Of a stretch of 54,550 nt of DNA, positions 15,276 through 18,365 are shown piece after piece. The position numbers and the translations under genes were made by a program. This DNA is from Lutibacter sp. (GTDB lineage Bacteria; Bacteroidota; Bacteroidia; Flavobacteriales; Flavobacteriaceae): assembly GCF_030692605.1 (NCBI RefSeq), contig NZ_JAUYUD010000060.1, positions 1 through 54,550 of the forward strand, written 5' to 3'. The first letter of the stretch is position 1; every line of letters begins with the position of its first letter. The notes beneath the pieces are model-generated. The model was not told the DNA's origin. It made no database searches and saw nothing but the letters and a program-made list of their open reading frames with translations.

Positions 15276-18200
15276 ATGGAATACAATTTTAGAAAGATTG
15301 AGGATGATTGGCAAAAGTATTGGGCAGAAAAACAAACGTTTAAAGCAGAAAATAACGCCACAAAACCTAAATATTATGTGTTAGATATGTTCCCTTATCC
15401 GTCTGGAGCAGGGTTACATGTTGGGCATCCACTTGGATATATTGCTTCAGATATTTATGCACGTTACAAACGACATAAAGGATTTAATGTTTTGCATCCG
15501 CAAGGGTACGATTCTTTTGGATTACCAGCAGAACAATATGCAATTCAAACAGGGCAGCATCCAGCTATTACTACAGAAGCTAACATAAAAACATATAGGA
15601 AACAGTTGGATCAAATTGGATTTTCATTCGATTGGTCTCGCGAAGTACGGACTTCAGATCCAAGTTATTATAAATGGACTCAGTGGATTTTCATTCAATT
15701 ATTCGAATCTTATTATTGCAAAGATGCAAATCAGGCAAGATCAATTTCAGAATTGGAAGCTGTTTTTGCTACTGAAGGAAACTATAGAATTAATGCAGCT
15801 TGTGATGATAATATTGAAATTTTTGGTGCTGATGATTGGAAAAACTATTCAGAAGAACAAAAACAGAAAATTTTATTAAAATACAGACTTACTTTTTTAT
15901 CTGAAACTGAAGTAAACTGGTGCCCTGCTTTGGGAACTGTATTAGCAAATGATGAAATTGTAAACGGTGTTTCTGAACGTGGAGGACATACCGTTATTCG
16001 AAAAAAAATGATGCAATGGAGTATGCGAATTACTGCATATGCACAGCGTTTATTGGATGGTTTGGCTAAAATAGATTGGCCACAACCTTTAAAAGATTCA
16101 CAAACGTATTGGATTGGAAGATCTGAAGGAGCAATGGTTTCATTTAACGTCATTGCGAGTGAAACGAAGCAATCTCTACCTTATAAGATTGATGTTTTTA
16201 CAACTCGCCCTGACACCATTTTCGGAGTTAGCTTTATGACACTTGCTCCCGAACACGAATTAGTTTCAAAAATTACAACTCCAGAACAAAAAGAAGCAAT
16301 TGAAACGTACAAAAAAGCTACCTCAAAACGAAGTGAATTAGAACGTATGGCTGATGTAAAAACAATTTCGGGAGTTTTTACAGGCGCTTATGCCCAACAT
16401 CCATTTTCTGGCAAAGAAGTTCCAATTTGGATTGGAGATTATGTATTAGCTGGTTATGGGACAGGTGCCGTTATGTCGGTTCCATGTGGTGATGAACGTG
16501 ACTATGCTTTTGCGAAACATTTCAATATTGAAATTCCAAATATTTTTGAAGGTGTTGATATTTCCGAAGAAGCTTATACCGATAAAGAAAATTCTGTAAT
16601 TGCTAATTCTGATTTTTTGAATGGATTGCCTTATAAAAAAGCAATGAAAACCATTATTTATGAAATAGAAAAACGTGGTTTTGGATATGGAAAAATAAAT
16701 TACCGTTTGCGCGATGCAGTTTTTAGTCGTCAACGATATTGGGGAGAACCTTTTCCGGTATATTACAAAAACGGAATGCCTCAAATGATTGACAAACAAT
16801 ATTTGCCAATTGTATTACCAGAAGTTGAAAAATACTTACCAACAGAAGATGGTCAACCACCTTTAGGTAATGCAACTACTTGGGCTTGGGATACAAATAC
16901 AAACACAATAGTTAGTAACGATAAAATAAGTCACCCTTCGGGGGATTTAGGGGGCGTTTTTTCGCTGGAATTAAACACAATGCCGGGTTGGGCAGGAAGT
17001 TCTTCTTACTTTAACCGGTATATGGATTCTGAAAACACAGAAGAATTTGTAAGCAAAGAAGCTGTAAATTATTGGCAAGATGTAGATTTGTATATTGGTG
17101 GAAGTGAACACGCAACTGGGCATTTATTATACTCTCGTTTTTGGCAAATGTTTTTATACGACAAAGGAGTTGTACCTGTTGAAGAATATGCAAAAAAACT
17201 GATTAACCAAGGAATGATTACTGGGACTTCAGCTTTTGTTAAAAGAGTAGGTTTTACTTTTTTTAACTTAGCAGGAATTGATTTTTCTGTAAAAGATAAT
17301 GAAAATTTAAATCTTTTAAGAGAAGAATTTAAGGTGGTAAAGGATAAAATTATTTCAGAGGACTTAATATTATATTTAAAAAAAACATACAATCTTGATA
17401 AAACGAACAATAAAGAGCATATTGAACATATGAAAAAAAGAGAAGTTTTGATTAATTATTTAATTAATCCAATTTCTCAAAAAATTAGTGAATTAGGCTT
17501 AATTGATAAAATATTGATTGATGATGGAGATTTACAGTTTTTCAAAACACACGTATCGGTTGACTATGTAAATTCGAATGATCAATTAGATTTTGAAAGA
17601 TTAAAAAAGGAGGATATTCTATATAAGGAAGTAGAATTTATAACAGCAGATAGTAATATATTTTTGTGTTCTCGCGAAGTAGAAAAAATGTCTAAATCCA
17701 AATACAATGTTGTAAATCCAGACCAAATTTGTGTGGAATACGGAGCGGATAGTTTACGAATGTTCGAAATGTTTTTAGGTCCGTTAGAGCAGTCTAAGCC
17801 TTGGAAAACTTCCGGAATTTCGGGTGTTTACAGTTTCTTAAAAAAATTGTGGAAATTATATATTGTAAACGATGTTTTTTCTGTTTCAGATGAAGAGCCA
17901 ACACCTGAAGAATTTAAAGTTTTGCACAAAACTATTAAAAAAGTGGAAGAAGATATTGCAAATTTCTCTTTCAACACTTCGGTTTCAACATTTATGATTG
18001 CGGTAAACGAATTAACAGCTTTAAAATGTAATAAAAGAGCAATTTTAGAGCCACTAGCCATTATTATTGAGCCTTATGCACCGCATATTGCTGAAGAATT
18101 ATGGAAAAATCTAGGACATTCAACATCTATTTCAACTGTTGAATTCCCTGTTTTTGAACCAAAATATTTGGTAGAAAGCAGAAAGGAATATCCTGTTTCA

Positions 18201-18365
18201 TTTAATGGTAAAATGCGTTTTAAAATAGAATTATCATTAGATTTGGGGATAAAAGAAATTGAAGATGCTGTTTTGGCTCATGAAAAAACGCAAGAGCACT
18301 TACAAGGAAGAATTCCTAAAAAGGTAATTATAGTTCATGGTAAAATTATAAACATTGTTGAATAA
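15276..18365 (+). CDS. leuS: Leucyl-tRNA synthetase with repeat-derived insertions
   Basis: This class I enzyme charges tRNA-Leu. The HVGH motif is at 48-51 and KMSKS at 804-808. The CP1 editing domain lies at about 220-420, including TTRPDTIFG. At 1029 residues it is long; from memory the flavobacterial enzyme is about 920-950. Three insertions explain this. Residues 292-300 (VIASETKQS) are encoded by a GTCATTGCGAG...GAAGCAATCTC element. About residues 553-560 (HPSGDLGG) come from a GC-rich CCCTTCGGGGG stretch. A block of about 85 residues lies at 648-755. Residue 577 is Ser where SSWYF is usual. The frame is intact, so the enzyme is probably active. It heads a cluster with a SemiSWEET gene 7 bases downstream. 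Confidence 0.96.
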   Translation: MEYNFRKIEDDWQKYWAEKQTFKAENNATKPKYYVLDMFPYPSGAGLHVGHPLGYIASDIYARYKRHKGFNVLHPQGYDSFGLPAEQYAIQTGQHPAITTEANIKTYRKQLDQIGFSFDWSREVRTSDPSYYKWTQWIFIQLFESYYCKDANQARSISELEAVFATEGNYRINAACDDNIEIFGADDWKNYSEEQKQKILLKYRLTFLSETEVNWCPALGTVLANDEIVNGVSERGGHTVIRKKMMQWSMRITAYAQRLLDGLAKIDWPQPLKDSQTYWIGRSEGAMVSFNVIASETKQSLPYKIDVFTTRPDTIFGVSFMTLAPEHELVSKITTPEQKEAIETYKKATSKRSELERMADVKTISGVFTGAYAQHPFSGKEVPIWIGDYVLAGYGTGAVMSVPCGDERDYAFAKHFNIEIPNIFEGVDISEEAYTDKENSVIANSDFLNGLPYKKAMKTIIYEIEKRGFGYGKINYRLRDAVFSRQRYWGEPFPVYYKNGMPQMIDKQYLPIVLPEVEKYLPTEDGQPPLGNATTWAWDTNTNTIVSNDKISHPSGDLGGVFSLELNTMPGWAGSSSYFNRYMDSENTEEFVSKEAVNYWQDVDLYIGGSEHATGHLLYSRFWQMFLYDKGVVPVEEYAKKLINQGMITGTSAFVKRVGFTFFNLAGIDFSVKDNENLNLLREEFKVVKDKIISEDLILYLKKTYNLDKTNNKEHIEHMKKREVLINYLINPISQKISELGLIDKILIDDGDLQFFKTHVSVDYVNSNDQLDFERLKKEDILYKEVEFITADSNIFLCSREVEKMSKSKYNVVNPDQICVEYGADSLRMFEMFLGPLEQSKPWKTSGISGVYSFLKKLWKLYIVNDVFSVSDEEPTPEEFKVLHKTIKKVEEDIANFSFNTSVSTFMIAVNELTALKCNKRAILEPLAIIIEPYAPHIAEELWKNLGHSTSISTVEFPVFEPKYLVESRKEYPVSFNGKMRFKIELSLDLGIKEIEDAVLAHEKTQEHLQGRIPKKVIIVHGKIINIVE
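16149..16176 (+). repeat. GTCATTGCGAG...GAAGCAATCTC palindromic repeat inside leuS
   Basis: The ends ATTGC/GCAAT form an imperfect dyad. I recall this sequence as a dispersed palindromic repeat in many AT-rich bacterial genomes. It reads through leuS in frame as VIASETKQS, at the base of the editing domain. Confidence 0.6.
16932..16955 (+). repeat. GC-rich repeat-like insertion inside leuS (second site)
   Basis: CACCCTTCGGGGG followed by ATTTAGGGGGC is strikingly GC-rich for this genome. It contains CCC-TTCG-GGG, a short hairpin with a UUCG loop in RNA. It encodes about eight extra residues before the conserved LNTMPGWAGSS block and resembles dispersed G-rich repeats of Bacteroidota genomes. 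Confidence 0.45.

What the first reader, a model, noticed from the sequence alone, without database searches (positions are those of the whole stretch)
16149..16176. Palindromic repeat element carried in frame inside leuS
GTCATTGCGAG and GAAGCAATCTC flank a short centre and are read as VIASETKQS in the LeuRS editing-domain entry, right before TTRPDTIFG. I recall this sequence as a dispersed palindromic repeat in several AT-rich bacteria. In-frame capture inside an essential gene resembles Rickettsia palindromic elements and would be a protein-evolving repeat in Bacteroidota.
Basis: partly seen in the sequence, partly recalled or inferred. Interest (0 to 1): 0.75.

Follow-up and report, generated by a model that had tools for sequence, protein, structure and literature searches.

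The report
Mobile palindrome inside leucyl-tRNA synthetase gene
A short piece of a roaming DNA repeat sits in frame inside an essential enzyme gene of a bacterium, at a spot where related bacteria carry nothing, other repeats, or a whole DNA-cutting enzyme domain, so the spot looks like a landing site for mobile DNA.

Summary
16149-16176 lies in frame in leuS (15276-18365; genus Lutibacter by inference) and reads VIASETKQS. It belongs to a dispersed REP-like family: 3 strict copies in this genome, matches in 67 of 199 family genomes with none in the reversed control, and the exact 26-mer in at least 118 stretches from many phyla. The window copy is half of an inverted doublet and a weak palindrome by itself. 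In-frame capture recurs: 18 of 19 mid-ORF copies use this reading frame, leuS of other genera included.

The larger result lies around it. This LeuRS loop is an insertion hotspot. Of 38 genus genomes 33 were resolved: 14 empty, 3 VIASETKQS, 1 another palindrome, 15 a DUF559 endonuclease-type domain, often with C-rich palindromes at its edges. Such domains also sit in frame in MetH (this genome's too), IleRS, MetRS and HsdR-like ORFs. Insert and host-gene divergence disagree, so the inserts seem to move like homing elements, yet nothing suggests splicing. What moves GTCATTGCGAG is unknown. No cleavage or splicing was tested.

The parts
15276..18365 (+). leuS, leucyl-tRNA synthetase (1029 aa), the host gene
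   Evidence: ORF; Pfam PF13603, PF00133, PF09334, PF08264
16148..16174 (+). REP-like half unit: CGTC tag plus the 26-mer GTCATTGCGAGTGAAACGAAGCAATC (16149-16174), read as VIASETKQS
   Evidence: exact 26-mer in many phyla; in frame at the same LeuRS site in other genera
16146..16193 (+). LeuRS insertion hotspot 1 (between GAMVSF and TTRPDT); relatives carry nothing, other palindromes or a DUF559 domain here
   Evidence: the extra residues fall in a gap of the T. thermophilus LeuRS chain 1h3n
16932..16955 (+). Second in-frame C-rich repeat-like insert HPSGDLGG at LeuRS hotspot 2
   Evidence: 178 of 219 LeuRS rows have a 19-aa form here, the window 24 aa; single hit in the own genome by a pattern with up to 2 mismatches

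Best explanation
The feature is a truncated (half) copy of a YGTC-tagged REP-like doublet that landed in frame in a turn at the entry of the LeuRS editing domain and is translated as a nine-residue linker. That turn is a tolerated landing site that has been occupied again and again: by this repeat, by at least two other palindrome families, and by DUF559 endonuclease-type domains, often with C-rich palindromes at their edges. The DUF559 inserts behave like homing elements: they spread between strains independently of leuS or metH, mostly keep their catalytic motif, some lose it, and short palindrome alleles sit on sister branches. SHOWN: in frame, dispersed, alternating alleles, insert and host divergence discordant, inserts under purifying selection. 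INFERRED: the turn is at the surface; the endonuclease cuts empty alleles and is copied in by repair; motif-less forms are decayed ones; short palindrome alleles are scars; the GTCATTGCGAG unit is moved by an unidentified enzyme acting on hairpin DNA.
For: Dispersed repeat. In-frame capture: 19 of 123 exact copies are mid-ORF, 18 of 19 in the VIASETKQS frame. Site alternation: 33 of 38 genus genomes resolved, 14 empty, 3 VIASETKQS, 1 VIPAEAG, 15 DUF559. On a LeuRS tree of 170 representatives without the insert columns, VIASETKQS (17 rows) needs 17 changes, as scattered as shuffled labels. MetH: 12 DUF559 and 18 empty alleles in 30 loci, same junction (genomes). Hairpins at DUF559: 23 of 27 phylum loci have more near than far, p 1.6e-5. 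Mobility: LeuRS insert dS is below host dS in 10 of 10 close pairs, 7 by bootstrap; in MetH, of 30 pairs with host dS under 1, 7 are significantly lower and 10 significantly higher. Motif present in 118 of 150 LeuRS site-1 and 113 of 150 MetH inserts. Link between the two: in Polaribacter glomeratus leuS (L224) VIASETKQS lies in frame at the right edge of a motif-less DUF559 insert, before the same KIDVFTTRPDT junction.
Against: Apart from L224 the two kinds of insert share a site but not shown machinery: no GTCATTGCGAG-like hit within 300 nt of DUF559 in 31 genus and 30 phylum loci, nor of Y1 transposase in 30 loci (positions), and 0 of 143 large LeuRS inserts hold this repeat. The window copy alone is hardly palindromic. 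Shared 26-mers across genera could reflect transfer of leuS segments, and loci found with the 26-mer match it by construction. Over all pairs, saturated ones included, insert dS is lower in only 19 of 28 (LeuRS) and 31 of 55 (MetH); pairs are not independent. Tree representatives were thinned within class only, which inflates counts of changes. DUF559 sequences cluster by host gene, which vertical descent would give too.
Confidence: 0.68

Rival explanations
1. One ancient insertion of the repeat in leuS, kept vertically and lost in some lines; the site is not a hotspot for this family.
For: The 7 distinct genes have it at about the same place (the expression used looked only there).
Against: VIASETKQS is as scattered as shuffled labels (17 rows, 17 changes); the element is 25-26 of 26 nt identical in L010 and L030 while flanks are 75-88% identical; full doublet (L191), half unit and half unit beside DUF559 (L224) occur at this site, as do other palindrome families.
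Confidence: 0.2
2. Selection on the protein: VIASETKQS is a convergent or functional loop peptide of LeuRS and the resemblance to a repeat is incidental.
For: This turn varies in length in solved LeuRS.
Against: The exact DNA occurs outside genes and in unrelated genes in many phyla; empty alleles are common.
Confidence: 0.03
3. The DUF559 insert is a domesticated part of LeuRS/MetH, inherited with the host and not mobile.
For: Insert dN/dS 0.09-0.42; DUF559 sequences cluster by host gene (19 changes against 87 shuffled); a motif-less form is common (28 of 253 rows).
Against: Discordant insert and host dS in both directions; alternation with empty alleles in LeuRS and MetH; hairpins at the edges.
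Confidence: 0.2

Closest known systems
CGTC-tagged REPs (Di Nocera et al. 2013, PMC3733652; abstract, passages, sections 6 and 15 seen)
   Same: CGTC/TGTC end tag, stem starting AT, dimers, Bacteroidetes among the host phyla, copies inside genes as 20-30 residue peptides, no dedicated transposase known
   Different: Window copy is a half with a 5-bp stem; the exact 26-mer here spans more phyla; whether this sequence is one of their four families could not be seen (figures not held)
Rickettsia palindromic elements RPE-4/RPE-6 (as described in PMC3733652)
   Same: In-frame capture inside conserved genes
   Different: Other lineage and sequence; half unit
EDxHD (Vsr-like) homing endonucleases, I-Bth0305I; a DUF559 gene is assigned to this family in PMC9403480 (passages seen; the cited Taylor et al. 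2011 is not held; 'Vsr-like' recalled)
   Same: DUF559 and homing are already linked in print
   Different: That passage is about inteins; here no intein domain was reported by Pfam in the 5 proteins scanned and no Rfam intron in 7 loci: the domain seems to stay fused to the host enzyme, with palindromic edges
DUF559 (PF04480), solved relative 3hrl 'Endonuclease-Like Protein'
   Same: Pfam and PDB sequence matches; transposase/DUF559 segments are recombination hotspots in Legionella (PMC12308824, passages seen)
   Different: Embedded in LeuRS, MetH and others; no report of this seen in the listings

Membership tests
CGTC-tagged REP | CGTC (or TGTC) tag at one end | tested here: met
   Window 16148-16151 is CGTC; of 123 exact 26-mers 31 are preceded by C and 81 by T
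CGTC-tagged REP | 8-9 bp stem beginning AT | tested here: not met
   Window copy pairs only ATTGC/GCAAT, z 0.03
CGTC-tagged REP | Many dispersed copies, often inverted dimers | tested here: met
   38 against 12 in the control with one mismatch; by loose expressions 35 of 82 and 62 of 123 26-mers have an inverted partner within 90 nt downstream
RPE-like element | In frame inside a conserved gene | tested here: met
   leuS open through the element; 19 of 123 copies mid-ORF
RPE-like element | Peptide made and tolerated in vivo | not testable with these tools
   no proteomics
Homing element (DUF559 alleles, not the window copy) | Endonuclease domain with catalytic-type residues | tested here: met
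   PF04480 E 5.8e-33; motif in 118 of 150 LeuRS site-1 inserts
Homing element (DUF559 alleles, not the window copy) | Empty alleles and history unlike the host gene | tested here: met
Homing element (DUF559 alleles, not the window copy) | Cleaves the empty allele and is copied in | not testable with these tools
   needs biochemistry
Intein or intron | Self-splicing domain or RNA | tested here: not met
   no intein domain among Pfam matches of 5 proteins; 0 Rfam matches in 7 loci

The most novel reading that the evidence does not exclude
DUF559 inserts are a new class of mobile element: non-spliced, in-frame homing endonucleases with palindromic ends that live fused inside loops of essential enzymes (LeuRS, MetH, IleRS, MetRS, HsdR), cycling between empty, loaded, motif-less and palindrome-scar alleles; REP-like palindromes such as the window copy use the same loops and supply translatable linkers, and the window allele may itself be such a scar (compare L224).
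Probability: 0.5. Interest if true: 0.86.

Novelty: new variant of a known kind. Interest (0 to 1): 0.74.

Why it matters
If right, essential housekeeping enzymes carry translated mobile endonucleases without intein or intron help, a direct natural route by which domains enter proteins. It would offer a lead to enzymes that use REP-like palindromes other than RAYTs, and it makes the old question of how palindromic repeats enter proteins testable, since empty, half, full and loaded alleles of one site coexist among near relatives. It also shows that some proteins annotated 'DUF559 domain-containing' are LeuRS or MetH (names).

Tried and rejected
RAYT (Y1_Tnp) as mobiliser of GTCATTGCGAG: 20 of 38 genus genomes have Y1_Tnp hits, but in 30 loci one motif hit was found in all and none within 300 nt. 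GIY-YIG as mobiliser: 4 of 30 loci have the motif within 300 nt, but near and far densities are alike (0.62 and 0.56 per kb); another motif, GAGCTTGTCGAAG, is denser near GIY-YIG (20 near, 9 far). A perfect-hairpin count (15 near, 16 far, 1.27 and 0.22 per kb) and a hairpin-energy count in genus loci (147 of 2082 windows near, 241 of 17578 far) were followed by a phylum test because genus loci are homologous. The hairpin measure for GIY-YIG loci was weak (10 near above far, 8 below, 27 loci, p 0.016). Raised identity around the element between G000 and G234 leuS was looked for and not seen. A structure model of LeuRS-DUF559 was not obtained: busy; accepted; unfinished; failed; a new job was not accepted. 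Paper searches of which I saw listings only: (two returned none); one search listed PMC3733652. Passages on DUF559 in PMC12308824 and PMC9403480 were then seen.

Limits of the counts. The 253 LeuRS rows come from two top-120 lists plus loci; one search selected for DUF559, which is therefore over-represented; 12 rows were dropped there. 'Empty' includes P0064 and P0120; P0120 is a C-rich short insert. The frame count is not independent: L137/L162, L163/L165 and L130/L237 are close homologues. L125, L163, L165, L191 and L224 were found through the repeat. In one search an expression found the DUF559 in 20 of 30 loci, 27 of 30 loci were long enough. One search assumed the domain at position 1501, wrong for a few cut loci; with the positions bears its zeros out. 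The motif excluded E-F-D-G, so its 0 of 4 for HsdR is an artefact; with F allowed it is 4 of 4, MetH 142 of 150, LeuRS site 1 117 of 147 before relabelling. In one search L038 was skipped; the MetH counts (bootstrap at least 0.98 or at most 0.02; one of the ten has a saturated insert dS) were read off its table; the LeuRS 10 close pairs are those among L024, L026, L027, L028 and L042.

Full report
1. The observation. Window 16149-16176 reads GTCATTGCGAG TGAAAC GAAGCAATCTC and is in frame in leuS (15276-18365), giving VIASETKQS at residues 292-300 between GAMVSFN and LPYKIDVFTTRPDTIFG. The gene is LeuRS by Pfam. Many of its nearest proteins are named Lutibacter, and contigs of two same-genus genomes have the lengths of contigs behind proteins named L. 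maritimus and L. oceani, so the genus is Lutibacter by inference. In the alignment to the solved T. thermophilus LeuRS 1h3n the extra residues fall in a gap just before the editing domain.

2. It is a dispersed repeat. GTCATTGCGAG-N(0-24)-GCAATC occurs 3 times in the own genome, 0 in the reversed control, and in 67 of 199 genomes of the family, 0 in the controls. With one mismatch GTCATTGCGAG occurs 38 times in the own genome against 12 in the control, several as inverted pairs 48-75 nt apart. On all 118 stored loci there are 123 copies; 31 are preceded by C and 81 by T, and by a loose expression 62 have an inverted partner within 90 nt downstream. The window copy alone folds no better than shuffles; a stretch with the doublet in a Polaribacter leuS folds with z -3.33. 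So the window holds a half unit.

3. In-frame capture recurs. Of the 123 copies 19 lie inside an ORF of at least 250 aa, more than 60 residues from its ends, and 18 of these are read as VIASETKQS, although four of the six frames of the 26-mer are open (open frames worked out by hand). Hosts, recognised by eye, include LeuRS (Tamlana L163 and L165, Polaribacter L191 and L224), PurL (L189), GluRS (L130, L237) and Mfd (L188). The broader pattern is also in frame in leuS of G234, another genus, at the same site, and in a PurL-like ORF (L075). L010 and L030, two same-genus leuS genes found by protein similarity, match the window element 26/26 and 25/26 nt while their flanks are 75-88% identical.

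4. The site is a hotspot. Between GAMVSF and TTRPDT, LeuRS proteins carry about 10 residues (empty), VIASETKQS, VIPAEAG (another palindrome), C-rich repeat peptides such as LSPTLSQGKG...LPLGKDLGW, or 140-170 residues that match DUF559, PF04480. Over 253 rows: 67 empty, 34 VIASETKQS, 4 VIPAEA, 5 other short inserts, 115 DUF559 with the motif, 28 without it. Among the 38 genus genomes 33 were resolved: 14 empty, 3 VIASETKQS (G000, G002, G021), 1 VIPAEAG (G028), 15 DUF559; G004, G006, G016, G034 and G060 were not. On a tree of 170 representatives without the insert columns VIASETKQS needs 17 changes for 17 rows and all states together 50 against a shuffled mean of 73; thinning within class raises these counts. 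P0120 (QVLSPTLFEGKGLGERIS) is sister to P0162, which carries like ends with DUF559 between: the best candidate for a scar. In Polaribacter glomeratus (L224) the window's own repeat lies in frame at the right edge of a motif-less DUF559 insert at this site; none of the 143 large inserts shows it, so this is a single case.

5. DUF559 inserts elsewhere. The own genome has one in frame in metH (G000:C2:40726-41046, ORF 1055 aa, Pfam). In the genus metH is loaded in 12 and empty in 18 of 30 loci, at one junction where about seven residues are replaced; the genome listing gives 13 loaded and 23 empty of 36 genomes with metH. Large proteins with related DUF559 number 1313 and 1581 in two searches limited by word sharing; their best 120 include LeuRS, MetH, IleRS and MetRS. 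In the phylum 170 of 296 genomes have a DUF559 match, some in HsdR-like ORFs (4 loci). 40 of 321 proteins and ORFs with a match have more than one such domain. In 27 loci from across the phylum the share of strongly folding 32-nt windows is higher within 200 nt of the domain than beyond in 23 (Wilcoxon p 1.6e-5).

6. The inserts seem to move separately from their hosts. In LeuRS, among five genomes with close host genes, insert dS is below host dS in 10 of 10 pairs, 7 with bootstrap above 0.975; over all 28 pairs, many saturated, it is lower in 19. In MetH, of 30 pairs with host dS under 1, 7 have significantly lower and 10 significantly higher insert dS, as expected if different insert lineages have been exchanged at one site; over all 55 pairs it is lower in 31. 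Insert dN/dS lies between 0.09 and 0.42. DUF559 sequences nevertheless cluster by host gene (19 changes against 87 shuffled), as expected of site-specific elements and also of plain descent. No intein domain and no Rfam intron was found, so a fused protein is the simplest product.

7. What links the two. The shared fact is the site, plus the single case L224. The motif was not found within 300 nt of DUF559 in 31 genus and 30 phylum loci or of Y1 transposases in 30 loci, so its mobiliser is unknown. [quoted passage not shown] That paper also reports REPs, among them R. conorii RPE-4 and RPE-6, inside genes and some in tRNA synthetases of other bacteria. One paper assigns a DUF559 gene to the EDxHD homing family in a passage on inteins (PMC9403480), and one reports transposase/DUF559 segments as recombination hotspots in Legionella (PMC12308824). 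DUF559 inside LeuRS or MetH, or this repeat in genes, did not appear in the listings.

8. Verdict. The window feature is a new member of a known kind (REP/RPE-like, in frame). The surrounding system, palindrome-edged endonuclease domains living apparently unspliced inside essential enzymes at shared sites, is a new variant of homing elements if the inferred cleavage is real.

Noticed in passing
window 16932-16955: LeuRS hotspot 2: several repeat-like peptides (such as SPPSGDLGG, SPLGRLGG, TLSGVEGS, NQVQHD, HSALDAES) sit here in relatives, and some LeuRS carry DUF559 here too.
   Followed up: partly
window about 17247-17540: A third variable stretch of LeuRS (residues about 658-755): for most listed relatives the alignment breaks off here and resumes after it; inserts differ strongly within the genus.
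   Followed up: no
L314, L315, L316 (metH): A different repeat-like stretch (TACTTCGAC..GCTCAGTACAGGCTCG) sits in frame inside the C-rich palindrome at the left edge of the DUF559 insert: a repeat nested in a palindrome.
   Followed up: no
L278, L299 (own genome C82, C77): Two own Y1 transposase genes are flanked by their own palindromes of the type CCCCGAGGCTCTGCCTCGGG.
   Followed up: no
L095-L124: GIY-YIG genes of the genus have GAGCTTGTCGAAG-type repeats nearby (20 hits within 300 nt, 9 beyond), and L120 has a long alternating array of GTCATTGCGAG around one.
   Followed up: partly
L002: A doublet of the GTCATTGCGAG repeat is in frame in a restriction-modification-like ORF of the own genome (FVIARNEAIATDETASSLAVTG).
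   Followed up: no
L130, L237: The full doublet sits in frame at the same place of a GluRS-like protein in two different organisms, another possible shared landing site.
   Followed up: no
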